Shown here: positions 2,769 through 27,221 of the stretch, piece by piece
How positions within the stretch are numbered: position 1 is the stretch's first letter
How the letters are laid out: every line of letters starts with the position of its first letter
Assembly: GCF_011290685.1 (NCBI RefSeq)
Contig: NZ_JAANYN010000015.1
Coordinates: forward strand, 1-64,000
Origin: Cyclobacterium plantarum
GTDB taxonomy: Bacteria > Bacteroidota > Bacteroidia > Cytophagales > Cyclobacteriaceae
Direction: 5' to 3'
DNA: 64,000 nucleotides
Notes under the pieces: model-generated
Told to the model about the DNA's origin: nothing
Seen by the model: only the letters and a program-made list of their open reading frames with translations
Database searches by the model: none
Position numbers and translations under genes: made by a program

Positions 2769-2926
2769 CCCGATTCATTTTCAAATCCACATTTATTCCC
2801 TTTTTTATTAGCATAGTATTAATCAAATTCTGTTATACCTATTAGTTCTGAAAAAATAAAATTTTTTCTTCAGGTATAGGATAGATTTTTAAATGTCAAG
2901 ACTTATGTGGGTGAATTTGTTTTAAA

Positions 2927-7634: not shown

Positions 7635-7661
7635 TCATTTATTAATAAAATTCAATTAATC

Positions 7662-9191: not shown

Positions 9192-9344
9192 TCAAATAGA
9201 AAGCTTGAAAACCAGACAAAGAATTAATTTCCGGCTAATCTGAAATCAGCAGGTTAAGTTTGACATAAATGATAGGATTACTGGTTTCAGTATTGCAGAT
9301 AAAAGTAGAAATGAGTTCAATTGAAAGTTTAAAATTCACAAGAA

Positions 9345-10835
9345 ATGATGGCACAGCACTTATCCATATTGAAAAAATACCTAATGATTTGTTGCTTTCT
9401 TATGCTGAGTATGTGTACTCAAAATAGTAATCAAGCTTCTGAAAAATCAACAAAACCTAATATAATATATATTCTTGCAGATCAACTACGGGCCCAGGCT
9501 GTGGGCTACAGTGGAGACCCAAATGCAGATACCCCAAACCTGGATCGGCTAGCGGCCAGTGCAATTAATTTTAAAAATGCAGTGGCTGTAAGTCCTGTAT
9601 GTACTCCATACCGAGCGGCACTCATGACGGGTCGTTTTCCACTGAGTACAGGAATGTTTATGAATGATTTGTACTTGCCAAGTGAGGAACTTTGCATGGC
9701 TGAAATCTTTAAGGAAGCAGGATATAAAACAGGATACATTGGGAAATGGCATCTGGACGGGCATGGTAGGGAAAGTTTTATTCCTAAAAACCGCCGCCAA
9801 GGGTTTGAGTATTGGAAAGCACTGGAATGTACACACGATTATAACAATTCTTTTTATTATGCGAATGAGGACACTACAAAGCTTAAGTGGGAAGGTTATG
9901 ATGCCTATGCTCAGACCAAAGATGCTCAAGATTACATCCGGACCACTTCTACCGATGAGCAACCATTTCTACTTATGATATCCTATGGTATACCACATTT
10001 TCCGCACCATACAGCGCCTGCTGAATTAAAAGAAAAATATCCTTTAGATTCCATAAAACTCCGTCCTAATGTGCCTGAATGGAGGCAAGATGAAGCTCGA
10101 AAAGAGGCTCAGGGTTATTATGCCCATATCCTGGCACTGGACCTTTGTATAGGTAATTTAATGAAGACGCTTGAGGAGACAGGTCAAGCAGAAAATACAA
10201 TAGTAGTTTTTACAGCAGACCATGGAGAAATGCTGGGTTCACAAGGTGAGCCATCCAAAGAGAAACAGCGTCCCTGGGATGAGTCTATTCGTGTTCCTTT
10301 TCTAATTAGCTATCCAGCTATTTACGGGAAAGAAGGGTATGAGGTCAATGCACCAATTAATACGCCCGATATCCTACCAACTTTGTTATCCATGTCAGGA
10401 GTAGCCATACCCAAATCAATTGAGGGAGAAGACCTTACAGATTTTATCTCAAATAACAACATGGAGGATGATCGGGCTGCTTTGATAATGAGCGTTTATC
10501 CGTTTGCCGGCTACCACGAAGGGATCCCTTATAGAGGCATAAGAACGGCACGCTATACCTATGTACGAAACCAGGACCAACCATGGCTAATGTATGATAA
10601 TTTGAAAGACCCTTATCAGATGGAGAATTTGGTTAACAATTTAAATTACCGGGACATTCAAAGTAAACTTGATGAAACACTCCAGGCCAAACTTAAAGAG
10701 AGGGGTGATATGTTTCTACCCAAAGAACAATATTTAAGCATTTGGGGCTATGAAGTGAACACCGAAAGGGGGCATGAAATTCCCTATAAAAATTATGAGA
10801 CCAAAGTGCAAAGTCCGGGATTCAAAAATAATTAA
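9345..10835 (+). CDS. FGly-dependent sulfatase lipoprotein
   Basis: This 496-residue protein is a type I (family S1) sulfatase. The sulfatase signature C-T-P-Y-R at residues 86-90 supplies the cysteine that a formylglycine-generating enzyme converts to FGly. Metal-binding residues are visible in IIYILADQLR near the N-terminus and in TADHGEMLG later. Other family landmarks are GYKTGYIGKWHL and ALMTGRFPLSTGMF. The N-terminus is hydrophobic and ends in LMLSMC (Cys24), consistent with a lipoprotein. Two adjacent ATG codons exist at 9345 and 9348. It lies 153 bases after susD and should remove sulfate esters from the polysaccharide handled by this locus. The exact linkage cannot be read from the sequence. 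It is not a close copy of the sulfatase at 24971. Confidence 0.93.
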   Translation: MMAQHLSILKKYLMICCFLMLSMCTQNSNQASEKSTKPNIIYILADQLRAQAVGYSGDPNADTPNLDRLAASAINFKNAVAVSPVCTPYRAALMTGRFPLSTGMFMNDLYLPSEELCMAEIFKEAGYKTGYIGKWHLDGHGRESFIPKNRRQGFEYWKALECTHDYNNSFYYANEDTTKLKWEGYDAYAQTKDAQDYIRTTSTDEQPFLLMISYGIPHFPHHTAPAELKEKYPLDSIKLRPNVPEWRQDEARKEAQGYYAHILALDLCIGNLMKTLEETGQAENTIVVFTADHGEMLGSQGEPSKEKQRPWDESIRVPFLISYPAIYGKEGYEVNAPINTPDILPTLLSMSGVAIPKSIEGEDLTDFISNNNMEDDRAALIMSVYPFAGYHEGIPYRGIRTARYTYVRNQDQPWLMYDNLKDPYQMENLVNNLNYRDIQSKLDETLQAKLKERGDMFLPKEQYLSIWGYEVNTERGHEIPYKNYETKVQSPGFKNN

Positions 10836-11058
10836 CTTAGGTTTGATGTATTGATTTACCCATCCTTGGAGCATTTTTTGTTCCTGTTTGTTTAAAAGTT
10901 CAATAAATTTAACAATTGATACCTGTCGTTAGCCTCATTGCCTGACCACATTATTTTCGTGATTCTGCTAAACCTACCATCAGACTAATAGGTTGATCAC
11001 AGTATGGGACCGATACTAATTGGAAATGAAATTTAAAAATAGTTTATTATAATCAGAT

Positions 11059-12471
11059 ATGATAAAAGTCGGACTATTTGGAATTGGACTTGACACCTAC
11101 TGGTCACAATTTGAGGGATTGCTCGACAATCTTAATGGGTACCAGGAACAAATTAAAACTAAAATAATTGGCTTTGGATTGGAAGTGGTAGATGCCGGAA
11201 TGGTAGATACTCCAGAAAAAGCACGCAAAGCGGCTGACTTGCTAAAGAAGGAGGATGTAGAAATTGTTTTTCTGTATGTTTCAACTTATGCTTTGTCGTC
11301 AACCGTATTACCCATAGCGCAAAAAGTAAAGGCACCAATCGTTATTTTAAATCTTCAACCTGTTCCCCAATTAGATTACGAAAAGTTTAATGCCCTTAAT
11401 GACCGTGGAAAAATGACCGGTGTCTGGTTGGAACATTGTCAATCTTGTTCAGTGCCGGAAATTGCAAGTGTGTTTAACCGGTCTGGAATCCAATACGATT
11501 TTGTGACAGGATATTTAAATGATGAACAAGCCTGGTCGGAAATAAAAGTGTGGACGGAGGCGGCATGCGTTGCTGCGAAAATGAGAAACAATCGGCTTGG
11601 AGTTCTTGGGCATTACTACGGTGGAATGTTGGATGTATATACCGACCTGACAAAACAAAGCACTGTATTCGGCACGCACATCGAATTGCTGGAAATGTGT
11701 GAAGTAAAAAAATTCCGGGATGAAGCTTTAGAAGGGGAAGTGCTTTCAAAAATAGAAGAATTTACAAACTCTTTTGAGGTCTCAACTGAGTGTGAGAAAA
11801 GTGAGATTGAAAGGGCAGCGAGAACATCAGTAGCACTAGATAAGTTAGTAGAAACCCACACTCTTGGTGCACTTGCATACTACTATGAAGGCGAATCCGG
11901 AAACGATTACGAAAATATAGTTACATCGGTAATAGCTGGCAATACCCTATTAACCGGGAAAAACATTCCTGTAGCGGGAGAATGTGAGGTAAAAAATGCA
12001 CAGGCCATGAAAATAATGGCTGAATTTGGTGCAGGAGGCTCCTTTTCTGAATTCTACCTGATGGATTTTAAAGATGACGCCATCTATCTGGGTCACGATG
12101 GTCCTGCACATCCCGCCATTGCCGAGGAAAAAGTAAAATTGGTTCCACTGCCCGTTTATCATGGCAAGCCCGGGAAAGGTTTATCCATTCAAATGAACGT
12201 TAAAAACGGACCGGTGACTTTACTCTCTGTGGTGGAAGGAACAGAAGGTTTGTTTTTTTTAACTGCAGAAGGGGAATCAGTTGCGGGGCCTGTATTGCAA
12301 ATCGGAAATACCAATAGCCGCTATAAATTCCCTATTGGTGCTAAAATGTTTATGAATCAATGGTCGAAACGGGGCCCAGCACATCATTGTGCTATTGGAC
12401 TTGGGCATATTGCTGACAAAATTGAAAAATTGGGTCAAATATTGAATATCGACGTGGTAAAAATTTGTTAA
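11059..12471 (+). CDS. L-fucose/L-arabinose isomerase-superfamily protein
   Basis: This 470-residue cytoplasmic protein has no signal peptide and belongs to the L-fucose/L-arabinose isomerase fold group. Typical features are the N-terminal KVGLFGIGLDTYW strand, the VEIVFLYVSTYALSSTVLPI nucleotide-binding-like segment, MRNNRLGVLGHYYGGMLDVYTD, and the C-terminal GECEVKNAQAM and HHCAIGLGH motifs that carry candidate metal-ligand Glu and His residues. Members interconvert aldoses and ketoses with Mn2+; the substrate could be L-fucose, L-rhamnose or L-arabinose. With RhaT nearby, a role in 6-deoxyhexose catabolism is the best inference. It lies 223 bases after the sulfatase in the same direction. 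Confidence 0.83.
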   Translation: MIKVGLFGIGLDTYWSQFEGLLDNLNGYQEQIKTKIIGFGLEVVDAGMVDTPEKARKAADLLKKEDVEIVFLYVSTYALSSTVLPIAQKVKAPIVILNLQPVPQLDYEKFNALNDRGKMTGVWLEHCQSCSVPEIASVFNRSGIQYDFVTGYLNDEQAWSEIKVWTEAACVAAKMRNNRLGVLGHYYGGMLDVYTDLTKQSTVFGTHIELLEMCEVKKFRDEALEGEVLSKIEEFTNSFEVSTECEKSEIERAARTSVALDKLVETHTLGALAYYYEGESGNDYENIVTSVIAGNTLLTGKNIPVAGECEVKNAQAMKIMAEFGAGGSFSEFYLMDFKDDAIYLGHDGPAHPAIAEEKVKLVPLPVYHGKPGKGLSIQMNVKNGPVTLLSVVEGTEGLFFLTAEGESVAGPVLQIGNTNSRYKFPIGAKMFMNQWSKRGPAHHCAIGLGHIADKIEKLGQILNIDVVKIC

Positions 12472-12573
12472 TTATTACAGCAAAGTTTTGAATACTAGGA
12501 AAAAAAATCAGAATAAATGTGGAAAAATAGTAAAGGTTTCCGGACACATTAAAGTAAAATTTACTGGCGTATT

Positions 12574-12936
12574 TTGAAGTCATTTATTAATATTAAAAAT
12601 TTGCTCACGAAATATTTGCAATTTGGAATCATAAAAGATGTAGGTATTACCGAGGTAAAAATAAATGGACAAGACAAAGGCATCGTCTGGACATCGCCAT
12701 TTCTGGTAGAAATTAGCGATGCACAACAAAAAGGCGACAATATCCTTGAAATTAAAGTGGTGAATTCATGGTACAATCGTGTAGCAGGTGACCAGATTTT
12801 ACCCAATAAAAAGAAATTCACCTCCACCAACATCGATTTGAAACATGATTATAGAGGCAGACCGATTGACGAAATACCATTGGAACCATCAGGTTTATTG
12901 GGGCCGGTTACTATTTTAGAGGCAGAAGTATTCTAG
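12574..12936 (+). pseudogene. C-terminal remnant of a GH106-like alpha-L-rhamnosidase
   Basis: This 120-codon frame has a weak TTG start and no signal or catalytic domain. From about codon 22 it matches the C-terminal jelly-roll (galactose-binding-like) domain of large GH2/GH106-type hydrolases: VGITEVKINGQDKGIVWTSP, then NILEIKVVNSWYNRVAGD, ending in LEPSGLLGPVTI. Intact GH106-type enzymes are around 1000 residues, so roughly 90 percent is missing. I read it as the surviving 3' end of a rhamnosidase gene deleted between the isomerase-like gene and rhaT. The retained tail keeps its frame and stop. GH2-type enzymes have a related domain, so the exact family is an inference. Confidence 0.7.
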
Positions 12937-13063
12937 TGTCAATGCAAGCCTAAACCTATGTAAATAGTATGTCTTTGAGCTATTTCAGCCGTACAAAAAG
13001 CCTCAGATCACCCAGGCTATGCTTGTTTTTTGTACCTTAACCAAATTCAAAATTCACTAATCA

Positions 13064-14170
13064 ATGCAAGCAATTTTTGGAATAATTTTCCACTCAATAG
13101 GTGGATTTTCCGCAGGTAGTTTTTACATGCCATTTGATAAAGTAAAAGGTTGGGCTTGGGAAAGTTACTGGATCGTAGGAGGTCTTTTTTCATGGATAAT
13201 AGTGCCTCCTCTGGCGGCTTGGCTTACAGTTCCTGATTTTATGGAAATTATCAGTAGTTCTTCAATGAGTATTATTTATCTTACTTTTTTCATGGGTGTT
13301 TTGTGGGGCATTGGAGGATTAACTTACGGCCTGGGAATAAGGTACCTGGGCATGTCTTTGGGTAGTTCCGTCGTTTTGGGTTTTACAGCAGCTTTTGGGG
13401 CCTTGGTTCCATCAATATATTACAATTTATACCCTGCTGTTGGGAAAGTTTCATTTACTGATATGATAAACAGTACCGGAGGCCGTTTGGTATTATTAGG
13501 TGTCCTTCTTTGCCTGACAGGTATTGCTGTCTCGGGAAAGGCTGGTATGATGAAAGAACGGGAACTATCGGAAGAACAGAAAAGAAAAAGTATAAAGGAT
13601 TTTAGCCTGGTGAAAGGATTGATAATTGCCATTATTTCCGGTATTCTCAGTGCATTTTTCAACTATGGAATTGAGGCTGGAAAACCTTTGGCAAATGCCG
13701 CTGTGGCGGCAGGGTTTAACCCGCTTTATCAAAACAATGTTAGTTTTGTAGTAATTTTGTGGGGAGGTTTTGCCACCAACTTTATTTGGACAACATTTTT
13801 GAGCTTAAAAAACCGTACACATAAAGATTTTTTGAATAAAACAACTTCCTTATTTAATAATTATATGTTTGCAGCAATTGCGGGAACTATCTGGTTTTTA
13901 CAGTTCTTTTTTTACGGAATGGGCGAAAGTAAACTAGGTAATGGTGCAAGTTCATGGATACTCCATATGTCAACCATAATCTTAACTGCTAATTTTTGGG
14001 GCTTTTACCGAAAAGAGTGGAAAGAAACTTCAGCAAAAACCAAGTGGACCATAGCATCAGGAATTGTTATCATTATTTTGTCGGTATTCATAGTAGGGAT
14101 TGGAAATTTTAAAGAAACATTACCTTTGGTCCATTCCTTTACAGGAAACCAATTTCAATGGTGCCATTGA
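13064..14170 (+). CDS. rhaT: L-rhamnose/proton symporter RhaT with a chimeric C-terminus
   Basis: This 368-residue inner-membrane protein has about ten hydrophobic helices and strong RhaT features: FHSIGGFSAGSFYMPF near the N-terminus, GVLWGIGGLTYGLGIRYLGM, GSSVVLGFTAAFGALVP, AFFNYGIEAGKP and FFYGMGESKLG. RhaT imports L-rhamnose with a proton. Members I know end near residue 345-355. Here residues ~352-368 (from TLPLVHSF to WCH) are translated out of frame from DNA homologous to the 3' end of the susD gene at 20075-21526, so a recombination junction near 14117 replaced the native end. The transporter core is complete and may still work. It lies 127 bases after the rhamnosidase remnant. Confidence 0.9.
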   Translation: MQAIFGIIFHSIGGFSAGSFYMPFDKVKGWAWESYWIVGGLFSWIIVPPLAAWLTVPDFMEIISSSSMSIIYLTFFMGVLWGIGGLTYGLGIRYLGMSLGSSVVLGFTAAFGALVPSIYYNLYPAVGKVSFTDMINSTGGRLVLLGVLLCLTGIAVSGKAGMMKERELSEEQKRKSIKDFSLVKGLIIAIISGILSAFFNYGIEAGKPLANAAVAAGFNPLYQNNVSFVVILWGGFATNFIWTTFLSLKNRTHKDFLNKTTSLFNNYMFAAIAGTIWFLQFFFYGMGESKLGNGASSWILHMSTIILTANFWGFYRKEWKETSAKTKWTIASGIVIIILSVFIVGIGNFKETLPLVHSFTGNQFQWCH

Positions 14171-14201
14171 TTCGGCAACAGACCAAAACCCCAGTTATTG
14201 A
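14118..14201 (+). pseudogene. SusD C-terminal tail fragment
   Basis: In the frame shifted by one from rhaT, these bases encode HYLWSIPLQETNFNGAIDSA and then a DQNPSY end with a TGA stop. This nearly matches the last residues of the SusD protein encoded at 20075-21526 (differences include Pro to Ser and Gly to Ser). Only the tail is present; upstream lies rhaT sequence. It is therefore the 3' stub of a second copy of that susD gene, or of a close relative. Confidence 0.88.
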
Positions 14202-14209
14202 TAATTGTA

Positions 14210-14244
14210 GCAGACCTTCCAGGTTTTTGAAGCTTGAAGGTCTG
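14210..14244 (+). terminator. Hairpin in the susD-FAD oxidoreductase spacer, copy A
   Basis: The arms GCAGACCTTC and GAAGGTCTGC pair over 10 base pairs across a 15-base loop. The matching spacer in copy B (21540-21566) also forms a strong hairpin from partly different bases, so structure is kept while sequence changes. There is no long T tract right after it, so it could be an intercistronic mRNA-stability or attenuation element rather than a full terminator. Confidence 0.6.
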
Positions 14245-14266
14245 CGTTATACAAACCCAAGATAAG

Positions 14267-14593
14267 ATGAAACGAAGAGAAATGATCGCCAGAATTGGGG
14301 CGATATCAGTAGGACTGACCGCCCCGCAGCTTACAAAAGGGGAAATGCTGGCAGCACCATATACCATCAAAAAGCAAAACATTGAAACCGAAATTTTGAT
14401 TGTCGGAGGGGGAACTGCCGGCGTTGTGGCAGCCATACAAGCCAGAAGAGCAGGAGCCAAAACCACCCTGATAGAAAGTGGTAGCCAATTGGGAGGGACG
14501 ACTAGCACCGGAGGGGTGTCCTTCCCCGGGATATTCCATGCCTGGGGGAGGCAGATTATCGGAGGAATAGGATGGGAGCTGGTACATCCTTGA
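14267..14593 (+). pseudogene. Truncated FAD-dependent oxidoreductase (N-terminal copy)
   Basis: This 108-codon frame is the N-terminal quarter of the oxidoreductase encoded intact at 21590-22969. It starts MKRREMIARIGAISVGLTAP, keeps the dinucleotide-binding motif VGGGTAGVVAAIQARRAGAK and GGTTSTGGVSFPGIFHAWG, then leaves homology at GWELV and stops two residues later. I chose the ATG at 14267 by alignment with the intact copy; an upstream in-frame TTG at 14234 lies inside the hairpin. No substrate domain remains, so it cannot be a functional enzyme. The stub is still open with no internal stop. Confidence 0.9.
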
Positions 14594-14775
14594 AATAACC
14601 AACCATTTTAAAAGTGCATCATTGATTGTATGGGGTCTTTTTCTATGGAGTTGCGGGGACAAAAATGGGGTATATTATTTTTTCTATTTTCATCCAGCTG
14701 TTTTCAAGTTTTTTTTAATTAAAAAATTATGTATTATTAACCGGAGAATCCAAAAACATTTAACCCACATATAGC

Positions 14776-15450
14776 ATGACTTTTCAAAAAATAAGGACAT
14801 CACCCTACCATGCTAAGGGGAGTGAAAAAAATGATCCTTTTAGAAAAGCAGCATATAAAAAGGAAGATCAGGCATTGTGGAATTCCTTTAAGGCTGGAGA
14901 GGAAGCGGCATTTATCCACATTTACAGTGCCTATGCCAATATCCTGTACAATTACGGGTGTCAGTTCACCTCTGATCATGAGATAGTAAAAGATTGCCTC
15001 CAGGATTTTTTTGTTTATTTGAGGGAAAAAAGGTCCGGACTGGGAAATACTTCTTCCATCAAGTTTTATCTGATGAAATCCTTTAAAAGAAGAGTGATTC
15101 ATGATCTGGAAAAAATCAAACAGGAAAATAGAAATAATGAAAATTTCAACTATTTTCAATTCCCTGTTGAGTTGTCCCATGAGGCGATATATATCCAGAA
15201 CCAAATGGAAGAGGATCAGCTTTTGAACCTGGAGCAGGCCCTTAAATCTTTGGAAAGTAAGGAAAGGGAAGCCATATATTATTTTTATTATGAAGGGTTT
15301 TCCTATGAACAAATAGCTGATATTTTCGATTTTTCACACACTTCATCCGCAAGAAGATTAATCTATAAAGGCTTGGCCAATATTAGAAAAATCATGATGT
15401 CTTTTATTGTCGGCCAAATGATAATCCTTTATTTTAATTCCTCCAATTAA
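14776..15450 (+). CDS. ECF-type RNA polymerase sigma factor (module 2)
   Basis: This 224-residue protein is an ECF sigma factor. Region 2 covers roughly residues 45-110, with DHEIVKDCLQDFFVYLREKR matching the conserved helix. Region 4 lies around 150-205 (LESKEREAIYYFYYEGFSYE, then QIADIFDFSHTSSARRLI). It opens a second sigma - FecR - SusC - SusD set and is 182 bases downstream of the truncated oxidoreductase. It is clearly diverged from the module 1 sigma, so the modules are not a recent duplication of each other. By family knowledge it should be released from the FecR protein at 15528 when the SusC receptor at 16714 senses its glycan. Confidence 0.93.
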   Translation: MTFQKIRTSPYHAKGSEKNDPFRKAAYKKEDQALWNSFKAGEEAAFIHIYSAYANILYNYGCQFTSDHEIVKDCLQDFFVYLREKRSGLGNTSSIKFYLMKSFKRRVIHDLEKIKQENRNNENFNYFQFPVELSHEAIYIQNQMEEDQLLNLEQALKSLESKEREAIYYFYYEGFSYEQIADIFDFSHTSSARRLIYKGLANIRKIMMSFIVGQMIILYFNSSN

Positions 15451-15527
15451 AAAAAATCATTTTTTTTTTTTAAAAGCCGGTATCATTTCCCGTTTCTTCC
15501 CCTTATACTATTAAACAAGCTACTACT

Positions 15528-16580
15528 GTGAAGGAAGAAAAACCGGATATTTTCAGTTTTTTAATTTCCAATAAGGATTTCAGGGATTGGGTATTAAAAC
15601 CCAATGAAGAAAATGCTTATTTCTGGGAGAAATGGATGGAGGAAAACCTGGTGCATTTAAAGGAAGTATATAAGGCAAGGGAATTTATAGAAAGACTGGA
15701 TTTTAAACAGGAAAGCCTTTCTGAAGAGGAGCTGAATTTGCTTTTGGGTAAAATTATTGCCAGGGAGCCTATCCATTCCAACTCCTTTCCACCACAAAGG
15801 GGATATTTTCCCATTTGGCAAAAACAATGGTTCCGTATTGCTGCCATTTTGGTATTGATGGTTTTATCTTCTGTCCTTATGGAAGAAATTTTCAGAAATC
15901 AGATTATCCCTGCTGAGAGTGTAGGGATCGAATGGAAAGAATTTCACAATCCAAGAGGAAAAAAATCAAAGATCACCCTACCGGATGGCACTTTGGTTCA
16001 TTTGAACCATGAAAGTACGCTCAGGTTTCCCAAGAAATTTTTGGGTACATCCAGGAGTGTGGAATTGACGGGTGAGGCTTTTTTTGAAGTGGTACCCAAT
16101 GATACCTTGCCTTTTATTGTACAAGCTGGCGGGCTGAAAGCAGAAGTGTTGGGTACTTCTTTCAATATTCAATCCTTTGATTATAACCCTTCTTCATCCA
16201 TATCCCTGGTTACCGGAAAAGTAAGGGTGAGTTTTCAAGAGCATCAGGATCTCGATAATGAAATATTAATACCAGGGGAACAGCTTAATTTTGACAAGCA
16301 TCAAAAGAAAGCCTTTAGGTCAAAATTTGATAGGGAGGCCGTTACTGCCTGGAAAGACGGTATTTTGATATTCAGGGATTCGGGATTCGAAAACTTCATC
16401 AAACAATTGGAGCGATGGTATGGGGTGGATTTCCAGGTATATGGAAACACAAAGCAGAAATGGAAAGTAAACGGCCGCTATCAGGACCAGAAATTAGATG
16501 ATATCCTGATCGGATTGAAGTTTGTCTATGATATCGACTACAAAATACAAGGTAAAAACGTAATCCTAAAAGTTAATTAG
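15528..16580 (+). CDS. FecR-family anti-sigma factor (module 2)
   Basis: This 350-residue FecR protein starts with GTG (VKEEKPDIFSF); no ATG lies nearby that keeps the conserved N-terminus. The N-terminal NKDFRDWVLKPNEENAYFWE region matches the sigma-binding part of module 1's FecR. A membrane helix lies at ~103-120 (IAAILVLMVLSSVLM), the FecR domain at ~130-240 (LPDGTLVHLNHESTLRFP, LTGEAFFEV) and a C-terminal DUF4974-type domain at ~285-350 (FENFIKQLERWYGVDF). It lies between the module 2 sigma factor (77 bases upstream) and SusC (133 bases downstream). A T-rich tract (about 15460-15470) sits in the upstream spacer. Confidence 0.92.
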   Translation: MKEEKPDIFSFLISNKDFRDWVLKPNEENAYFWEKWMEENLVHLKEVYKAREFIERLDFKQESLSEEELNLLLGKIIAREPIHSNSFPPQRGYFPIWQKQWFRIAAILVLMVLSSVLMEEIFRNQIIPAESVGIEWKEFHNPRGKKSKITLPDGTLVHLNHESTLRFPKKFLGTSRSVELTGEAFFEVVPNDTLPFIVQAGGLKAEVLGTSFNIQSFDYNPSSSISLVTGKVRVSFQEHQDLDNEILIPGEQLNFDKHQKKAFRSKFDREAVTAWKDGILIFRDSGFENFIKQLERWYGVDFQVYGNTKQKWKVNGRYQDQKLDDILIGLKFVYDIDYKIQGKNVILKVN

Positions 16581-16713
16581 CATGAGGAAAATATCAATTG
16601 GAAGGTCAAATCATCAAAATATAAAATTGTAAACCTGTTTCTCCTACTGGACCGTCCGGAATTCAGTGAATTGCTTCAATTAACAATCTATTAATATCTT
16701 TAAACCCATAATT

Positions 16714-19700
16714 ATGGAAAAATTCTTACAGTTCCTACGCACCAAAATAGGGAAACCCTTATTTGGTATGATCACGCTCCTCCTCTTGACGAGCGTTGGA
16801 TTCTCTCAGGTTAATCTTGCATCCGTTGGTGAATTTACCTTTTCCAGGACACAGTATCAGTTGGATGAACCTATCGATATTGAACTGGTAAATGCCAATA
16901 TCCGGGAAGTATTATATGTAATAGAAAGAAAATCAGGCTTTAAGTTGGTATATGACAAGTCCATCCTAAGCAATAAGGCTTCATTTACCATGGAAGCGCA
17001 GAAAATTTCTTTATATGAATTTCTACAGAGAATTTCTTCCCAATCGGCATTGAGGTTTAAGCAGGTAAACAACAACCTCAATGTGACAATGGTAGAGAGA
17101 GCAGAGGAAATACCAAAGTCACAGGACGATATTACCGTGACGGGATCAGTGGTAGATGAAAATGGTAATCCCCTTCCGGGTGCTACGATTACAGTGGAAA
17201 ACACCTCGATAGGCACAGTTTCGGACATAGATGGTAATTTCTCTATAGAGGTCGATGAAGGAGTTGTTTTGGTAGTGTCTTTTATTGGATACCAGACCAA
17301 AAGGATAACAGTTACCAATCAATCCCGCATTGATATTCAGATGGAGCTGGACGAATCCGCCCTTGAAGAGGTGGTAGTAGTAGGCTATGGTACGGTAAAA
17401 AAGAGTGATTTGACCGGAGCCGTTTCTCAGGTGAAATCAGAAGAAATCAATGCTTTTCCAACTTCCAATGTGATGCAAGCCCTTTCCGGAAGGGCTGCTG
17501 GGGTTCAGGTGATCCAGAATACCGGAGCTCCGGGAGGTGGAATTAGTGTTCGTATTAGAGGTACCAATTCCATTCAGGGAGGAAATGAGCCTTTATATGT
17601 TATTGATGGCTTTCCATTTTCTGGAAACCCTACAAATTTGAATAATTTTGATATTGAAAGTATTGAGGTACTTAAAGATGCCTCGGCTACTGCCATATAT
17701 GGTTCCAGAGGTGCCAATGGAGTTGTTTTAATAACCACTAAAGGAGGTAAAGAAGGTACAACCAAGGTAGATTTTGAATCAAGCTACAGCATCCAATCAC
17801 TGCGCAAAAGGCTGAATCTTATGAATGGCCGTGAATATGCGGAGCTACAAAATATGCAGGCATCCAATGATAACATCCCACCCTATTTCACACAGGAGGA
17901 GCTGGCTGATTTCGGAGAAGGATATGATTGGCAAGATTTGGTGTTTCAAAACGCTCCTATCCTCAATACATCATTAAATATAAGTGGAGGGAATAGTAAA
18001 ACGCAATATGCTATTTCAGGGAGCTACTTTGGACAGGAAGGGATAATCAAAGGAAGCGATTATAACCGATACTCCATTCGGACCAACATAACACATAAAA
18101 TTAGTGAAAAGATCAAAATCGATTTTAACAACACCCTAACCCACTTGAAAACGGAAAGGAGAGATAGTGGTGGAGGACATCGAGGTACTTCTATGATCGG
18201 TTCTTCCATAATGGCGGCACCAATATCCCAACCCTATAACGAGGATGGTTCTTATAATGTATTGGCAAATGAGTTTCCTTTTGTAGCTCCTGATATCATT
18301 AACCCTTTAAATTTCATTAATGAACAGCACAATGAAATCAAGGCCAATGTAGTTTTATCTAATCTGGCCTTTGTATACCAGCCTACAAAGGAACTGACCT
18401 TAAGGATATCAGGAGGTATTGAAAATAGGGATGATAGAGAAGATAGCTACACAACCAGAAATTTTTTCAATTCTCCGGGGAGGGCAAGCGTAAATACTGG
18501 GCAGTTTAGAAGCCTATTGAGTGAAAATACCCTAAGTTACAACAAGACAATTGCTGATAGGCACCAGATAAATTCAGTGATTGGATTTACCTTCCAAGAC
18601 TTTCTAAATACTTCTTTGGGTGCGAGTGGTGTTGGTTTTTTAAGTGATGCATTTGAGACCTACAGTCTCGGATCTGCAGAAACACCTGGAATTCCAGGTA
18701 GTGGGTACTCCTATTCGGCATTGCTTTCCTATTTGGGGAGAGTTAATTACACCTATGATAATAAATACCTTTTCACTGTGAGCTTCAGATCGGATGGTTC
18801 TTCCAGGTATAGTCCAGGGAATAAATGGGGTTACTTCCCTTCAGGAGCTGTGGCGTGGAGAATTTCGGAAGAAGATTTCATCTCCACCTCCTCCGTCCTA
18901 TCTGACCTGAAGCTTAGAGCAAGCTGGGGGATGACAGGTAGCCAGGCAATCAGTCCCTATGCAACGCTCAATCAGTTGAGTCCTGGCCGAACCATATTTG
19001 GCAACCAGCTTTACAATACCTTCGCCCCAAGTACGGTGCTTCCCGGTGACTTGAAATGGGAAACTACAGAGCAATTGGATATCGGTTTGGATGTGGGTTT
19101 GTTGGACGATAGAATCATTTTTAATGCGGATTATTACATCAAAAACACAAGAGATTTGTTGAATACAGTTCGATTACCAAGCTCTATGGGTTTTACTACT
19201 ACCGTGCAGAATGTTGGCCAGGTGCAGAATAAAGGCGTAGAGTTTGGTGTAGATGCCAAGGTCCTGACAGGTCAGTTTAAGTGGGACCTTTATGGTAATA
19301 TTGCTTTCAACAGAAATAGGGTCATCAGTTTACACAATGGAGAAGATATTTTAGGAGCATTTGTGAATGTACTGGTGGTGGGCGATAACTTGACCATTTT
19401 AAGGGAAGGCAGACCAATTGGGCAATTTTATGGATACGTAGAAGATGGTTACAATGAGAATGGTCAAATCAAATTCGTTGATTTAAATAATGATGGTAAT
19501 ATTAACGATAATGATAAAACCTATATTGGTGACCCCAACCCTCGATTCATATATGGGTTGAATTCAAGCATGACTTATAATAATTTTGAATTTCGTTTTT
19601 TCATCCAGGGAACACATGGAAATGATATATTCAATGTTAGTTCCATTCCAAGTACGCTTGATTTTGGCCAGGGATTAAATATGCCAAGAGAAGTTTTTTA

Positions 19701-20034
19701 TGATCACTGGAGCCCCGAAAACCCAAATGCCAAGTACCCAAGGATTAGTAGAAATACTGCTGCCAGGGTATCTGACAGGTTTGTGGAAGATGGTTCTTTT
19801 TTAAGGTTTAGAAATATTGAGTTAGCGTATAGTTTGCCATTGGGTAATTTTGGAAGCAATACCTTTAAACGCGCTCAGATTTATATAAGTGCCCAAAACT
19901 TCATTACCCTGACCAATTATTCCTGGTGGGACCCCGAAGTGAATTCCAGGGGAGCAGGTACCCAGCAAGGAATAGATCATTACAGTTACCCAATTCCAAA
20001 ATCATTTACCACTGGAGTTAGACTGGGGTTTTGA
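16714..20034 (+). CDS. SusC-like TonB-dependent receptor with STN domain (module 2)
   Basis: This 1106-residue outer-membrane receptor has a signal sequence (~1-32), an STN domain at ~55-125 (ANIREVLYVIERKSGFKLVY), a carboxypeptidase-regulatory-like domain at ~142-210 (GSVVDENGNPLPGATIT), the motif ALEEVVVVGYG at ~216-226, a plug (GAPGGGISVRIRGTNSI) and a C-terminal barrel. The STN domain makes it a signal transducer to the FecR/sigma pair directly upstream. It resembles the module 1 receptor only at family level. SusD follows after 40 bases. Its ligand is unknown; the linked FAD oxidoreductase and sulfatase suggest a polysaccharide with oxidisable or sulfated sugars (inference). Confidence 0.95.
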   Translation: MEKFLQFLRTKIGKPLFGMITLLLLTSVGFSQVNLASVGEFTFSRTQYQLDEPIDIELVNANIREVLYVIERKSGFKLVYDKSILSNKASFTMEAQKISLYEFLQRISSQSALRFKQVNNNLNVTMVERAEEIPKSQDDITVTGSVVDENGNPLPGATITVENTSIGTVSDIDGNFSIEVDEGVVLVVSFIGYQTKRITVTNQSRIDIQMELDESALEEVVVVGYGTVKKSDLTGAVSQVKSEEINAFPTSNVMQALSGRAAGVQVIQNTGAPGGGISVRIRGTNSIQGGNEPLYVIDGFPFSGNPTNLNNFDIESIEVLKDASATAIYGSRGANGVVLITTKGGKEGTTKVDFESSYSIQSLRKRLNLMNGREYAELQNMQASNDNIPPYFTQEELADFGEGYDWQDLVFQNAPILNTSLNISGGNSKTQYAISGSYFGQEGIIKGSDYNRYSIRTNITHKISEKIKIDFNNTLTHLKTERRDSGGGHRGTSMIGSSIMAAPISQPYNEDGSYNVLANEFPFVAPDIINPLNFINEQHNEIKANVVLSNLAFVYQPTKELTLRISGGIENRDDREDSYTTRNFFNSPGRASVNTGQFRSLLSENTLSYNKTIADRHQINSVIGFTFQDFLNTSLGASGVGFLSDAFETYSLGSAETPGIPGSGYSYSALLSYLGRVNYTYDNKYLFTVSFRSDGSSRYSPGNKWGYFPSGAVAWRISEEDFISTSSVLSDLKLRASWGMTGSQAISPYATLNQLSPGRTIFGNQLYNTFAPSTVLPGDLKWETTEQLDIGLDVGLLDDRIIFNADYYIKNTRDLLNTVRLPSSMGFTTTVQNVGQVQNKGVEFGVDAKVLTGQFKWDLYGNIAFNRNRVISLHNGEDILGAFVNVLVVGDNLTILREGRPIGQFYGYVEDGYNENGQIKFVDLNNDGNINDNDKTYIGDPNPRFIYGLNSSMTYNNFEFRFFIQGTHGNDIFNVSSIPSTLDFGQGLNMPREVFYDHWSPENPNAKYPRISRNTAARVSDRFVEDGSFLRFRNIELAYSLPLGNFGSNTFKRAQIYISAQNFITLTNYSWWDPEVNSRGAGTQQGIDHYSYPIPKSFTTGVRLGF

Positions 20035-20074
20035 TACCAATTAGACCTTATTTTGAAAAAAAATATTTGAAATC

Positions 20075-21526
20075 ATGAAATCTTACCATACATATTTAGT
20101 GAAATTTGGCTTGATTCTTTCCTTTGGGGGACTGTTGGCCTGCGAAGAATTGCTAATTGAGGAGCCTAAGACTGTGGCAGTTGAGGTGTTTTACAATACT
20201 GCTGAAGAGGTGGAAACGGCTGTAAATGCCATTTATTCACCCTTAAGAAGTACCAGAGCGGAGCAAATCGCCATTTTGGACGCTCATACAGATTGGGGAT
20301 ACGGAAGGGGCAGTAGGGCTCAATACAATGATTTTGCCGGCCTAAACCCTACAAATATCAATACGGCAGGATCTAGATGGGATTCGTTTTATCAGGCCAT
20401 CAGAAACGCAAATCTCGTAATTGCCAATGCTCCTGAGGGCGACAATATTAGTCAGGAAAATATTGATCTGTATGTTGCCGAAGCAAAATTCCTGAGAGCC
20501 CTAAGTTATTTTGACCTGGTGCGCAATTGGGCCGGAGTTCCTCTTCGAACCGAAGAAACCATGTTGGAAATAGATTTGCCGAGAAGTTCTGAACAGGAAG
20601 TGTATGAGTTGATTTTGGCGGATTTGCTGGATGCCGAAAGTCATCTTCCGGAAAATCCCAAAGACCTGGGAAGACCTACCGTTTATGCAGCTAAAACACT
20701 TTTAGCGGATGTATATCTTTTTCTGGAAAGGTATGAGGATGCCAGAAACAAGGCATTGGAAGTTATCCAGTCAAACAAGTATTCCCTGGTTCCCATAACA
20801 AACAAAGAAGATATTCAGTTAAATATTTTTGGTCCGGAACTAATGACAAGTTCCGAGGAAATATTTTACTTTAAATATGCCAGGGAATTGGGGCAAGGGA
20901 ATTGGATGCTTTTTGTGCTTAACCATCCCAGTACGGGTTATTTTAATTTCGGGGGAGCATATGCCCATTACAGTGATGCCACGAACCCATTCTATGCAGA
21001 ATGGGAAGACGGTGATATCAGAAAGGAACTCTGGGATCAGATTGACTTTGGATTAGGACCAACTACATTAGTCAGTAGTAAGTATGTGGACCCCAATGCG
21101 GTAGACCGGTTAGGTGCCGGTAATGACTTGCCGATTTACAGGTATGCCGAAGTGTTGTTGATCTTTGCAGAAGCAGAAGCCAGGTCAGCAGGTACTGTAG
21201 GACAAGATGCAATTGATGCCTTGAATCAAGTCAAAAGGAGAGCTTATGGATTTTCCACCCAAAGTCCTTCTCCGGTAGACTACCAGTTTAACCAGAATGA
21301 AGTTGAAGCTTTCCTGGATGCTGTTTTGCAGGAAAGGGCCTATGAATTCCAATTTGAAGGGAAAAGGTGGTTGGATTTGAAGAGAACCGGTAGAGCCCAG
21401 GAAATGATCCTTAAAAACAAGGGATTGGAAATTGCGGAGGCACATTACCTTTGGCCCATTCCTTTGCAGGAAACCAATTTCAATGGTGCCATTGATCCGG
21501 CAACAGACCAAAACCCCGGCTATTGA
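20075..21526 (+). CDS. SusD/RagB-family surface glycan-binding lipoprotein (module 2)
   Basis: This 483-residue lipoprotein has a signal ending GGLLAC with Cys23 as the lipidation site. SusD hallmarks include FLRALSYFDLVRNWAGVPL, the C-terminal YAEVLLIFAEAEARSAG, QERAYEFQFEGKRWLDLKRT and a final YLWPIP ... DQNPGY. It partners the SusC at 16714. Its last ~28 codons are part of the 466-base direct repeat also found at 14117. A perfect 13-bp-stem hairpin follows 13 bases after the stop, between this gene and the oxidoreductase. Confidence 0.95.
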   Translation: MKSYHTYLVKFGLILSFGGLLACEELLIEEPKTVAVEVFYNTAEEVETAVNAIYSPLRSTRAEQIAILDAHTDWGYGRGSRAQYNDFAGLNPTNINTAGSRWDSFYQAIRNANLVIANAPEGDNISQENIDLYVAEAKFLRALSYFDLVRNWAGVPLRTEETMLEIDLPRSSEQEVYELILADLLDAESHLPENPKDLGRPTVYAAKTLLADVYLFLERYEDARNKALEVIQSNKYSLVPITNKEDIQLNIFGPELMTSSEEIFYFKYARELGQGNWMLFVLNHPSTGYFNFGGAYAHYSDATNPFYAEWEDGDIRKELWDQIDFGLGPTTLVSSKYVDPNAVDRLGAGNDLPIYRYAEVLLIFAEAEARSAGTVGQDAIDALNQVKRRAYGFSTQSPSPVDYQFNQNEVEAFLDAVLQERAYEFQFEGKRWLDLKRTGRAQEMILKNKGLEIAEAHYLWPIPLQETNFNGAIDPATDQNPGY

Positions 21527-21906
21527 TTATTATAGCAAACCTGCCAGGTTTTCAAAACCTGGCAGGCCTTTATACTAACCCAATAAAAGATGAAAAGAAG
21601 AGAAATGATTGCCAGGATGGGAGCGATATCAGTAGGACTGACCGCTCCACAACTTTCCAAAGGGGATGTACTGGCAGCACCCTATACCATCAAAAAGCAA
21701 AAAATTGAAACCGATATTTTGATTGTCGGAGGGGGGACTGCAGGAGTTGTGGCAGCCATACAAGCCGGAAGAGCAGGAGCCAAAACCACCCTGATTGAAA
21801 GCGGCAGCCAATTGGGAGGGACCACTACCACCGGAGGGGTATCCTTCCCCGGGATATTTCATGCCTGGGGAAAGCAGATTATCGGGGGAATTGGATGGGA
21901 GCTGGT
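21442..21906. repeat. Imperfect direct repeat, copy B (partner 14117-14583)
   Basis: This block spans the end of an intact susD and the start of an intact FAD oxidoreductase gene and matches 14117-14583 with about 90 percent identity in the coding part. Because the genes here continue intact on both sides, copy B is in its native context and copy A is the derived, truncated one. The small length difference (465 versus 467) falls in the spacer. Confidence 0.93.
21540..21566 (+). terminator. Perfect hairpin between susD and the FAD oxidoreductase gene
   Basis: CCTGCCAGGTTTT and AAAACCTGGCAGG pair perfectly over 13 base pairs around a single base, so the real loop will be slightly larger. It starts 13 bases after the susD stop and is followed by CCTTTAT, not a strong T tract. 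It may attenuate transcription or protect the upstream SusCD mRNA end. The same-position hairpin in copy A shows compensating changes. Confidence 0.7.
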
Positions 21907-22969
21907 GATGGAAGCGGTAAAACTAAACGATGATATCCTGCCCAATTTCTCCATCATTCCCAACAATGATACCATTCGTCATTGGAGGCATCAGGTAACG
22001 GTAAATAAAGCCCTATATGCCCTGCTGGCAGAGGAAAAGTGCACGGAAGCTGGAGTGGATATTCACTTTTATGAAGCGCCTACAACCATTAATTTCACCA
22101 ATGGAAAATGGACGGTTAAAACAGTCGGAAAAGGAGTTGCCAATGAAATCATTTGTGATCAGATCATCGATTGTTCCGGTAATGCCGCCGCCGCCTCAAT
22201 TGCTGGATTTGACCTATTGAGAGAGAAAGATACACAACCAGGGTCCTTTATCTTTCGGATTGGGGGGTACGATTTCGATTCGCTGGACCTTTCCAAAATA
22301 CCGAAGGAATACCATGGTAGACTTAGACAAAATATGCTCATCAACGATGAGGTGAAGGTGGAATCCTCAGTGAATAATTTTCCTCCTACTGTGCCCTATA
22401 ATTATGTCTATGTGCATGGGGCCGACTCGTCAACTGCAGCATTACATACCCAAGCGAACATGGAGGGCCGGGCTTCCCTATTAAACCTGATAAGGAAATT
22501 GAGAACATTTCCGGGATGTGAAAAATTAAAATTAATGGATGCGCAGACTGAAACAGCCGTTCGGGAAACCTACCGGATCGACGGACTTTATAAGGTCACT
22601 CATGAGGACTATGTTTCAGGAAAAGTGTTTCCCGATTCCTTGTCTTATTCCTTTTATCCCATTGATTTGCATAGAGATGGGGAATCCATTTATCAGGAAT
22701 TTCTCAAAGAGGACATTGTGGCCACCATTCCACTCCGGGCATTGATACCCAAGAACAGCCAGAATTTTTTGGTCGCAGGACGTTGTCTGAGTAGTGATCG
22801 CCTGGCCAATTCAGCATTGAGGGTTCAGGCATCCTGTATGGGCATGGGACAGGCAGCGGCAGCAGCGGCCGTTTTGGCCATCAAACACAAGGTTACCCCG
22901 GCCAAGGTCCCCCTTGATGAGTTGAAAAATATGCTAAAGGTGCATGGAGGTATTGTGCCGGAAGCTTAA
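21590..22969 (+). CDS. FAD-dependent oxidoreductase, probably Tat-exported
   Basis: This 459-residue flavoprotein belongs to the FAD_oxidored/fumarate-reductase-like superfamily. The start MKRREMIARMG resembles a twin-arginine signal (KRREMI) followed by a short hydrophobic stretch, so the mature enzyme may be periplasmic. The FAD-binding motif DILIVGGGTAGVVAAIQAG with the downstream acidic residue in TTLIES is at ~38-65, GGTTTTGGVSFPGIFHAWG follows, and the second flavin-contact region is near the C-terminus (NFLVAGRCLSSDRLANSALR). It follows susD by 63 bases and precedes an SGAT-motif protein by 24 bases, so all are probably cotranscribed. Its substrate is unknown. A truncated copy lies at 14267. 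Confidence 0.85.
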   Translation: MKRREMIARMGAISVGLTAPQLSKGDVLAAPYTIKKQKIETDILIVGGGTAGVVAAIQAGRAGAKTTLIESGSQLGGTTTTGGVSFPGIFHAWGKQIIGGIGWELVMEAVKLNDDILPNFSIIPNNDTIRHWRHQVTVNKALYALLAEEKCTEAGVDIHFYEAPTTINFTNGKWTVKTVGKGVANEIICDQIIDCSGNAAAASIAGFDLLREKDTQPGSFIFRIGGYDFDSLDLSKIPKEYHGRLRQNMLINDEVKVESSVNNFPPTVPYNYVYVHGADSSTAALHTQANMEGRASLLNLIRKLRTFPGCEKLKLMDAQTETAVRETYRIDGLYKVTHEDYVSGKVFPDSLSYSFYPIDLHRDGESIYQEFLKEDIVATIPLRALIPKNSQNFLVAGRCLSSDRLANSALRVQASCMGMGQAAAAAAVLAIKHKVTPAKVPLDELKNMLKVHGGIVPEA

Positions 22970-22993
22970 ACAAAACCTACAAAGCAGAGCTAC

Positions 22994-24091
22994 ATGATCC
23001 ATTGGGTAAAGGGATTTTTGATCGGGCTTTCATTGGTCCTGTTTTTCTTGGGAAAAGAGGAGGATATCAGGTATTTTCAACCTGCTACCATAACCATAGC
23101 GGATTCTTCCAGCCTGGTCACCGTACCTATCAACGATTCTCTGTACCGACAGGAAATGCTTCAGAAAGACGGAACTGTAGGAGTTCCACTGAATTATTTT
23201 ATGGATTTGCACACCGGCGTATGCTTTGACAACAAGTGTCGTCCCTTAAAAATAAGGGTGTACTGGAACATTACCGGCAGGTACCTGGGTTTTGAGCTGT
23301 ATGATGGCGAGTTCCTGAGCAAATATGACCATGATCCTTTTTCAGCAATAGAATACGAAAAATTGCATCAACTGCTTGCAGATCCCTTTCTGCCATTGGG
23401 AGATTATGCCTTTGAGGATTTAATCAACCATACGGACACGGCAAGCCATTCAGTAGATGGGGTATCAGGAGCTACGGCAAAGGATGTGCTGGAATATGTG
23501 GTGCCCGGAGCTGCCTACACTACCCATAAATTATACCATGTCGTCCATGGCCCGGTTCAACAGCAGGTTATAGGTCTGACAGAAAGCAGCCTTGATCCGC
23601 ATTTGTTTACAAAGATCCTGCAAAGTACCGATCAGACTGACAGAACCTGGGCATTGGAACGGCTTGCCTTACTCCCGGAATTGAATGATTTGGTGCTAGA
23701 TGGATTAATTAAAATTTTACTTGAGGATGAATATTTCCAGTCCTACCTCTTGCTGAATACACTTACCAGCAGTCAATTGGAATCGGAGAAATTACAAACC
23801 AGTCTCTTCCAACTCATTGGAAAGGTAGACGCTGGAATAGAAAACCTGATTTTTAATAAATTGGCTGAAGCACCTCATTTAAGGCCAGCAGTGGTTGAAC
23901 AATCACTGCCGAACCTAAAGCAGATGAATGGTCCGCAGCTGGTAAAGTTGCTGAAATTATATTCAGAGCATGGGATTAATTCGGCCAATTTAAATGAAGC
24001 ACTTGGCGGAATGATACCCCATGAAAACAGTTTTGTGGAGCGTCAGGTACTACAGTTTCTGGAGAAGCAGGGCAGCAGTCCTGATCATTAA
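22994..24091 (+). CDS. SGAT-motif (FMN-binding-like) exported protein with helical C-terminus
   Basis: This 365-residue protein has one N-terminal hydrophobic segment (~5-19, GFLIGLSLVLFFLG), so it is membrane-anchored or secreted. Residues ~30-185 form a mixed domain with a Cys pair (GVCFDNKC, 77 and 82) and the motif DGVSGATAK at 155-163. That motif closely resembles the [S/T]GAT site at which ApbE attaches FMN to a Thr in NqrC/RnfG-type FMN-binding domains; Thr161 would be the attachment residue. Residues ~200-360 are leucine-rich helices that look like HEAT-type repeats. It follows the FAD oxidoreductase by 24 bases, suggesting an electron-transfer pair outside the cytoplasm (inference). 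The final motif position is Lys rather than the usual Ser/Thr, which lowers certainty. Confidence 0.6.
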   Translation: MIHWVKGFLIGLSLVLFFLGKEEDIRYFQPATITIADSSSLVTVPINDSLYRQEMLQKDGTVGVPLNYFMDLHTGVCFDNKCRPLKIRVYWNITGRYLGFELYDGEFLSKYDHDPFSAIEYEKLHQLLADPFLPLGDYAFEDLINHTDTASHSVDGVSGATAKDVLEYVVPGAAYTTHKLYHVVHGPVQQQVIGLTESSLDPHLFTKILQSTDQTDRTWALERLALLPELNDLVLDGLIKILLEDEYFQSYLLLNTLTSSQLESEKLQTSLFQLIGKVDAGIENLIFNKLAEAPHLRPAVVEQSLPNLKQMNGPQLVKLLKLYSEHGINSANLNEALGGMIPHENSFVERQVLQFLEKQGSSPDH

Positions 24092-24224
24092 AGGGATCCC
24101 TGGTGCCTAAGGGAGACCGTTGTCTTTTTCTATTGTTAGAGTTAAATCGCGTAAAGCTCCACCTATTCAAGTAAAATCCTGTGGGTCTAGATTGTTTAGA
24201 ATTTGCCTTTTAACAATAGGTAGT

Positions 24225-26413: not shown

Positions 26414-26559
26414 GGGATTTAGTGTTTTCAGAAATGAATTCAATTCAAACCCCAAATGAATTTTCCTTCATTTCTATCGTCCTCAGACCATAATTCTGGG
26501 GTTCTGAGTTTTTGATTTATTGATAGTCCACGATTAAAAAGCGTTTCAAGCCGTTTTAA

Positions 26560-27127: not shown

Positions 27128-27221
27128 ATGCTTAAATTTATCCTTAATCAAAAATATGAAATTAAAACTGAACTTTCTATTCCTATTTCCTTTCTAAGAT
27201 CAAAGTATTCATCCTCAGTTG

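What the first reader, a model, noticed from the sequence alone, without database searches (positions are those of the whole stretch)
14117..21906. A ~466-bp imperfect direct repeat brackets a complete sigma/FecR/SusC/SusD module and produced a chimeric RhaT end
Bases 14117-14583 match 21442-21906 (susD tail, hairpin spacer, first ~106 codons of the FAD oxidoreductase) at about 90 percent identity with sharp ends. Copy B is in native context; copy A is cut on both sides, joined to rhaT on the left and to unrelated sequence on the right. The last ~17 residues of RhaT are the susD tail read in the wrong frame. The segment between the copies, 7.3 kb with its own sigma factor, could have been inserted, or a larger susD/oxidoreductase copy could have been deleted. 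This is a module-scale recombination footprint in a glycan locus.
Basis: seen in the sequence. Interest (0 to 1): 0.75.

Follow-up and report, generated by a model that had tools for sequence, protein, structure and literature searches.

The report
Scar of a re-inserted sugar-uptake module
A bacterium apparently regained a lost set of sugar-uptake genes by recombination with foreign DNA, leaving a broken copy of one enzyme gene beside its transporter gene; the kind of event is known, but here its steps can be read from relatives.

Summary
The repeat is real: 14117-14583 matches 21442-21906 at 88.8% (465 positions), with no third DNA copy in the genome. (1) Older: rhaT was joined to the susD tail near a 14-bp shared run. 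The sister lineage G011 has this joint followed by one intact oxidoreductase, with no 7.3-kb module between and no SusD2 match in its genome. (2) Younger: a sigma/FecR/SusC/SusD/oxidoreductase-5' module came back in the window lineage. Copy A is the ortholog of G011's single copy (support 96), cut at codon 106 and decaying; copy B belongs to the newcomer. The downstream oxidoreductase is a mosaic that becomes G011-like near 22474-22500. Likeliest mechanism: homologous recombination on one side, illegitimate joining on the other (HFIR). Single-crossover integration of a truncated circle is the main rival. SusC2/SusD2 have far fewer silent differences from C. roseum than rpoB has, so the module moved between species. 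Both SusC genes are chimeras near the boundary between N-terminal signalling domain and transporter. A new, well-resolved member of a known kind.

The parts
664..1770 (-). aldo/keto reductase; left border of the variable slot, next to the oxidoreductase in three relatives without a module there
   Evidence: Pfam Aldo_ket_red 3.9e-47; gap of about 410 bp to the oxidoreductase in G001, G004, G005
2175..4042 (+). sigma1 (2175-2768) and FecR1 (2927-4042), regulators of the slot shared with G003, G006, G008, G011
   Evidence: Sigma70_r2/r4, FecR; orthologs
4200..7634 (+). SusC1, chimera: N-terminal (STN1) end to about residue 120-140 as in G003/G008, transporter body as in a C. salsum locus about 75 kb from its slot
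7662..10835 (+). SusD1 (7662-9191) and sulfatase (9345-10835)
   Evidence: Pfam Sulfatase; 88% and 84% identical to C. salsum genes
11059..12471 (+). arabinose/fucose-isomerase-like protein
   Evidence: Arabinose_Iso_C 3.8e-7
12574..12936 (+). remnant of the C-terminal end of a GH106 alpha-L-rhamnosidase
   Evidence: 81% identical to residues 876-982 of a G006 protein that is Glyco_hydro_106 4.9e-163; itself no Pfam hit
13064..14170 (+). RhaT with a 17-residue tail read from the susD remnant
   Evidence: RhaT Pfam 3.1e-71 over residues 4-347; tail
14095..14116 (+). older joint zone rhaT/susD tail: 14-bp run shared in register by rhaT end and susD
   Evidence: 16/22 identical; a run this long in 7 of 200000 random 22-mer pairs from the locus; same joint in G011
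14117..14583 (+). copy A: resident susD tail, decayed hairpin spacer, oxidoreductase codons 1-106 (pseudogene)
   Evidence: 94.4% to G011 single copy; tree 96; private changes A 19, G011 7
14584..14775 (+). AT-rich newcomer sequence right of the supposed illegitimate joint
   Evidence: 30% GC; one weak 50-bp match in held relatives
14776..16580 (+). sigma2 (14776-15450) and FecR2 (15528-16580), a regulator pair without close relative in the sampled genomes
   Evidence: Pfam; best sigma2 matches elsewhere 61% in a search of 295 family genomes; FecR2 no match at 1e-80 in the other 389 of 390 order genomes drawn, 48% in G177
16714..20034 (+). SusC2, chimera: different N-terminal domain (16714-about 17131) on a body orthologous to G003/G008
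   Evidence: TIGR04056 starts at residue 140
20075..21526 (+). SusD2
   Evidence: SusD_RagB 6.7e-28; 93% to G003
21442..21906 (+). copy B: susD2 tail, perfect palindrome 21540-21566, oxidoreductase codons 1-106
21590..22969 (+). FAD oxidoreductase, intact mosaic gene: G006/G004-like at 21940-22474, G011-like right of about 22474-22500
   Evidence: FAD_oxidored 5.5e-81; mosaic
22994..24091 (+). 365-aa protein of unknown family, conserved partner of the oxidoreductase
   Evidence: no Pfam or NCBIfam hit; next to the oxidoreductase in 8 of 10 further loci looked at

Best explanation
The locus is a variable slot between an aldo/keto reductase gene and an oxidoreductase gene. Step 1 (before the window lineage split from G011; order inferred): the SusC2 body and most of SusD2 were replaced by SusC1 body, SusD1, sulfatase, isomerase and rhaT. 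The old sigma1/FecR1/STN1 was kept, and rhaT ended up joined to the last part of susD2. Step 2 (window lineage only): DNA from a related species carrying sigma2, FecR2, SusC2, SusD2 and the oxidoreductase start recombined homologously inside the resident oxidoreductase (switch near codon 295-305). On its other side it was joined, as far as can be seen without homology, after codon 106 of the same gene. The resident start stayed behind as copy A, a dead fragment. The newcomer's start plus the resident end make the intact hybrid gene, and the module sits between them. Shown: both junctions, orthology of A, the mosaic, interspecies transfer of SusC2/SusD2. Inferred: direction, the one-sided mechanism, that 14584-14775 came with the module, and that the hybrid enzyme works.
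For: G011, the sister in the rpoB region (97.6%), is collinear with the window on both sides but lacks the module: 6561-14583 and 21420-24092 align to one continuous stretch of it. It has no SusD2 match at 1e-40 (27 of 75 first-look candidates scored). Its single copy pairs with A (94.4%; support 96; A alleles up to the last diagnostic site 14569), not with B. A decays: five private replacements including G60R, 19 private changes against 7 in G011, p 0.03. B's gene is G006/G004-like at 21940-22474 (57 of 65 informative sites against G011, 59 of 276 outside; 0 of 60 permutations) and G011-like to the right by shared sites. Silent fourfold differences to G003: rpoB 263/434, SusC2 body (residues above 180) 86/365, SusD2 47/170 (p 2e-26 and 2e-13). 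An analogous replacement is seen in G006: AKR, sigma1, FecR1 and STN1 are kept, a third kind of SusC body follows, and the last 66 codons of SusD2 remain before the oxidoreductase.
Against: B at 21690-21890 is nearer to G011 than to G006 or G003, so the donor was itself mosaic or of a near lineage. The tree of 22500-22966 does not resolve B with G011 (33); only the next gene does (92). With codons 1-106 alone the A/G011 pairing has support 75, and G008 falls beside it. The donor and the source of sigma2/FecR2/14584-14775 were not found, so homology at the left joint cannot be checked. G011 is a metagenome bin. A later gene conversion at 21940-22474 would leave the single-crossover and excision readings open.
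Confidence: 0.68

Rival explanations
1. Single-crossover integration of a circular molecule (circularised module with a truncated oxidoreductase end) into the resident susD tail/oxidoreductase start.
For: It gives exactly this topology. In E. coli most recombinants of this design were such duplications (PCR product in 56 of 60 clones; 14 sequenced, 109-950 bp; PMC3240628 passages).
Against: It predicts that B right of the crossover is resident. A stays G011-like to 14569, so the crossover would have to lie at 14569-14583, yet B at 21940-22474 is not G011-like. An extra conversion would be needed.
Confidence: 0.18
2. The repeat-bracketed arrangement is ancestral and G011 lost the module by recombination between A and B.
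For: Direct repeats of 466 bp at 89% can recombine; G011 has one copy and no module.
Against: G011 shows no switch from A-like to B-like inside the repeat, and just right of it differs from B at 38/76 fourfold sites in codons 117-295, against 17/70 in 305-459. The double arrangement was seen in none of the 10 other genus genomes whose upstream side could be read (in G009 the contig ends near the oxidoreductase).
Confidence: 0.1
3. Local tandem duplication of susD tail/oxidoreductase start followed by deletions (no foreign DNA).
For: Both copies are in the same orientation and close together.
Against: A is sister to G011's copy, not to B; SusC2/SusD2 show interspecies transfer.
Confidence: 0.03
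4. Transposition or site-specific integration with a long target duplication.
For: Insertion flanked by direct repeats resembles the H. pylori pattern named in PMC1643837.
Against: No Pfam hit to a recombinase among the module proteins scanned; the copies are not sisters.
Confidence: 0.01

Closest known systems
Homology-facilitated illegitimate recombination (HFIR)
   Same: [quoted passage not shown] recipient DNA between anchor and joint is replaced.
   Different: Read from genomes, not observed; donor unknown, so the illegitimate joint is not fully characterised.
Single-crossover duplications from truncated circles in E. coli
   Same: Partial duplication (109-950 bp) of the target gene flanking the inserted DNA (PMC3240628 passages).
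   Different: The mosaic in the right-hand gene does not fit without a further conversion.
T6SS effector-immunity displacement in Vibrio cholerae
   Same: Modules inserted one after another at an anchor, pushing remnants of the older gene aside; a mechanism akin to HFIR proposed (PMC5361080 passages).
   Different: Here nutrient-uptake modules, and the remnant is a dead gene start, not a kept immunity gene.
Insertion with long target duplication (Nobusato et al. 2000, seen only as cited in PMC1643837)
   Same: Insertion bracketed by a long direct repeat (PMC1643837 passages).
   Different: Here the two copies have different ancestry; there often linked to restriction-modification genes.
Polysaccharide utilization loci with SusC/SusD and ECF sigma/FecR
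   Same: Gene content and order.
   Different: Two units in one slot, both SusC genes chimeric near the N-terminal domain boundary.

Membership tests
HFIR event | homologous exchange at one end of the insert | tested here: met
   switch to resident-like sites in the oxidoreductase at about 22474-22500; the tree of 22500-22966 alone is unresolved
HFIR event | no extended homology at the other end | tested here: inconclusive
   resident oxidoreductase breaks at 14583 and 14584-14775 has one weak match among held loci, but the donor is unknown
HFIR event | recipient DNA between joint and anchor replaced | tested here: met
   codons 117-295 of B are not G011-like while A and codons 305-459 are
HFIR event | linear donor DNA taken up | not testable with these tools
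   needs an uptake experiment
single-crossover integration | sequence right of copy B is resident | tested here: not met
   21940-22474 is G006/G004-like, 57 of 65 sites; a later conversion could mimic this
insertion with target duplication | the two copies are sisters | tested here: not met
   A groups with G011, support 96
SusC/SusD utilization locus | adjacent SusC and SusD genes | tested here: met
   TIGR04056 5.4e-282, SusD_RagB 6.7e-28
SusC/SusD utilization locus | uptake of a particular glycan | not testable with these tools
   rhamnose suggested only by RhaT and the GH106 remnant

The most novel reading that the evidence does not exclude
The slot is a general exchange site in which sensing and transport are shuffled separately. 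Sigma, FecR and the STN domain at the front of SusC form one signalling cassette; SusC body, SusD and enzymes form a transport cassette. The break lies at the domain boundary inside susC, with the susD tail/oxidoreductase serving as the right-hand anchor. Behind the same sigma1/FecR1/STN1, three different SusC bodies are now seen: SusC2 type in G003/G008, SusC1 type in G011/window, a third in G006. In the window the SusC2 body has instead gained another signalling front. Bacteria could thereby rewire which signal switches on which uptake system, and lose and regain modules.
Probability: 0.35. Interest if true: 0.62.

Novelty: new member of a known kind. Interest (0 to 1): 0.42.

Why it matters
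It is an unusually readable case of how glycan-uptake modules are swapped, lost and regained between species. A close relative preserves the state before the last insertion, and the scar separates an older from a younger event. The SusC chimeras suggest a testable rule, namely that signalling parts (sigma, FecR, STN) move together and apart from transport parts. If general, that would explain how uptake systems change their regulators without breaking the contact between SusC and FecR.

Tried and rejected
Tandem duplication on the spot: rejected, A is not the sister of B. Transposon: no recombinase family among the module proteins scanned. Excision in G011: no A-to-B switch inside the repeat. 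The palindromic spacer as a mobile repeat: at up to 2 mismatches it occurs at 3 places in the genome and in 8 of 12 genus genomes, so it is no abundant family. Source of sigma2/FecR2: searched in 295 family genomes (sigma2) and 390 order genomes (FecR2), no near source. Ten selected regions were fetched. Among the five taken for their sigma2 matches (G067, G123, G219, G036, G177) none had a SusC2 body above 34% at full length; G067 had 40% over a 304-residue part.

Paper searches. For the mechanism: 17 papers with long target duplication terms, 15 listed, and 49 with homology-facilitated illegitimate recombination, 15 listed. For a prior description: Cyclobacterium with polysaccharide utilization and SusC 1 paper; SusC/SusD with horizontal transfer and homologous recombination 4; PUL evolution terms 8; STN/FecR/PUL terms 3; STN/domain-swap/SusC terms 4. 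From the listings alone no title or abstract start of these 20 rows describes this locus; none of them was opened. Opened by passages only: PMC5361080, PMC1643837, PMC3240628.

Dropped rows: one search aligned six relatives plus A and B only; the trees left out Lunatimonas (G029) and, in the last segment, G005 (contig end); the repeat tree left out G001, G004, G005, which lack the susD tail. One search looked at 10 of the 80 loci.
Full report
OBSERVATION. The repeat exists as described: 14095-14583 aligns with 21420-21906 at 431/490 identities, 88.8% over 14117-14583, and a DNA search of the whole genome gave no third copy. The parts are the last bases of susD, a spacer with a palindrome (of the two copies perfect only in B), and the first 105-106 codons of an FAD oxidoreductase. 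RhaT residues 352-368 are susD tail read in another frame. Native RhaT ends earlier in relatives. In G011 a stop codon lies just inside the tail (GNFKET*). At that position copies A and B and the tails of G003, G006 and G008 have the TAC of SusD, so the stop looks derived and the fusion first made a longer RhaT (inference).

WHERE IT IS. The genus is Cyclobacterium: records of other genus members among the matches are so named; the window's own species is not given.

THE SLOT. Twelve genus genomes including the window's own were compared between the aldo/keto reductase (664-1770) and the oxidoreductase. In three (G001, G004, G005) the two genes are neighbours, about 410 bp apart. In two (G003, G008) sigma1/FecR1/SusC2/SusD2 precede the oxidoreductase, in G008 with three further ORFs after the reductase. 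In G011 sigma1/FecR1/SusC1/SusD1/sulfatase/isomerase/rhaT precede it. In G006 the reductase is followed by sigma1, FecR1 and STN1 (72, 77, 73%), a third SusC body (26% to SusC2 over most of its length), a SusD, two GH106 rhamnosidases flanking the isomerase, and rhaT; then about 120 nt, then the last 66 codons of SusD2 (89%), then the oxidoreductase. In G002 and G010 the ORFs of at least 120 aa in the 15 kb upstream matched no window protein, in G007 only one did (a sulfatase, 25%); in G009 the contig ends there. The window alone has both sets. G002, G007, G009 and G010 carry SusC2/SusD2 relatives (72-77%) elsewhere, beside an oxidoreductase paralog of 58-60% identity. In the genome collection, SusC2-SusD2-oxidoreductase-365-aa protein also stands together in a Cyclobacteriaceae bin (L092) and Rhabdobacter roseus (L120), 2 of 10 loci looked at out of the 80 kept; the oxidoreductase/365-aa pair is in 8 of these 10.

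TWO EVENTS. G011 is collinear with the window from 6561 to 14583 and from 21420 to 24092 without a gap in G011. Its genome has no SusD2 match at 1e-40, with 27 of 75 first-look candidates scored. G011 shares the rhaT/susD-tail joint, including the eight bases 14109-14116, six of which differ from copy B. Hence the fusion predates the split and the module difference is separate. At the joint, 16 of 22 positions match susD in register with a run of 14, a run length reached in 7 of 200000 random 22-mer pairs drawn from 2001-24000. A native VGIGN or VGLGN end in other RhaT proteins means that the run may be true microhomology. The altered bases beside it remain unexplained.

WHO IS WHO. At the diagnostic A/B sites in the repeat, G011 carries A's letter at most. 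Where it carries B's letter, A stands alone among the three. The last A-like site is 14569. A-G011 identity is 94.4%, B-G011 91.4%, A-B 88.8%. The tree places A with G011 at 96. Changes private to one of the three: A 19, G011 7, B 32; A against G011 gives p 0.03. A's five replacements against G011 in 106 codons are all absent from B too, as expected for a dead fragment. With codons 1-106 alone the A/G011 pairing is weaker (75), with G008 beside it.

THE HYBRID GENE. Along B, sites that distinguish G011 from G006 were scored. Of 341 sites up to 24000, the best G006-like stretch is 21940-22474 with 57 of 65, against 59 of 276 outside; 0 of 60 permutations reach this. Fourfold differences B-G011 are 38/76 in codons 117-295 and 17/70 in 305-459; B-G006 are 16/78 and 36/68. 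Trees of the segments agree for the middle part (B with G006 and G004, 90). The tree of 22500-22966 is unresolved (33), and the next gene groups B with G011 (92). This is what one-sided recombination predicts: A wholly resident, B newcomer on the left, resident again on the right. Against a single clean donor, 21690-21890 of B is nearer to G011 than to G006 or G003.

TRANSFER BETWEEN SPECIES. Silent fourfold differences window-G003 are 263/434 in rpoB but 86/365 in SusC2 body and 47/170 in SusD2 (p 2e-26 and 2e-13). Window-G011 gives 44/467 in rpoB, 15/145 in rhaT, but 81/181 in SusD1, so other parts of the slot recombine too.

CHIMERIC SUSC GENES. SusC1 follows G003/G008 up to about residue 120 and, from about residue 181 on, a C. 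salsum SusC about 75 kb from that species' slot. In C. salsum that SusC body has another sigma, FecR and STN (42, 46, 51% to sigma1, FecR1, STN1). SusC2 follows G003 from about residue 141-160 on but has an unrelated front. The family model TIGR04056 starts at residue 140 of SusC2. STN is only a sub-threshold Pfam match in SusC1 (25.5 against 28.4 bits) and was not matched in SusC2, where FecR_C gives 19.9 against 24.4 bits; the name STN for SusC2 rests on position. The SusC2 body of G002, G009 and G010 has a FecR1/STN1-like front, and that of G007 a partial STN1-like one. This suggests that the window's sigma2/FecR2/front is the derived state. Against this, the FecR before a SusC2-like body is nearer to FecR2 in L092 (38%) and G046 (29%), with an STN1-like front in both. 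So which front is oldest in the wider family is open.

MECHANISM AND LIMITS. HFIR is favoured (0.68). Single crossover of a truncated circle (0.18) is the serious rival because E. coli experiments gave just such duplications (PMC3240628 passages). Excision in G011 (0.1) needs a later conversion in B. G011 is a metagenome bin, and the donor is unknown.

KNOWN OR NEW. HFIR, displacement series in T6SS loci (PMC5361080 passages) and insertions with long repeats (PMC1643837 passages) are known kinds. Transfer of such loci between Bacteroidota is stated in the abstract start of PMC13188876 (listing). This is a new case with a readable order of events. The separate shuffling of signalling and transport parts is the most novel reading. 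It rests on the two SusC genes here and the third body in G006.

Noticed in passing
26100-26413 and 27202-27514: A second direct repeat (about 80%): the sulfatase tail is repeated after a PemK/MazF-like toxin gene (26560-26904) and a putative antitoxin without Pfam hit. The orphan tail is 99.3% identical over 295 positions to that of C. salsum (rpoB 81%), and at this locus G011 has neither toxin pair nor second tail: a similar footprint with another cargo.
   Followed up: partly
25921-28400: 95.4% identical to C. salsum (G006) although rpoB is 81%: recent exchange between species.
   Followed up: partly
25293-25920: This part of the sulfatase gene is missing, with the same window ends, in both G004 and G006, which are not close relatives (81% in rpoB).
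   Followed up: no
12574-12936: Remnant of a GH106 alpha-L-rhamnosidase that is intact in C. salsum, where two such genes flank the isomerase.
   Followed up: partly
7662-9191: SusD1 differs from G011 at 81/181 fourfold sites while the neighbouring sulfatase differs at 24/183: a local replacement in one of the two.
   Followed up: no
22994-24091: 365-aa protein without any Pfam or NCBIfam match, yet found next to the oxidoreductase from Cyclobacterium to Arenibacter and a Lewinella bin.
   Followed up: no
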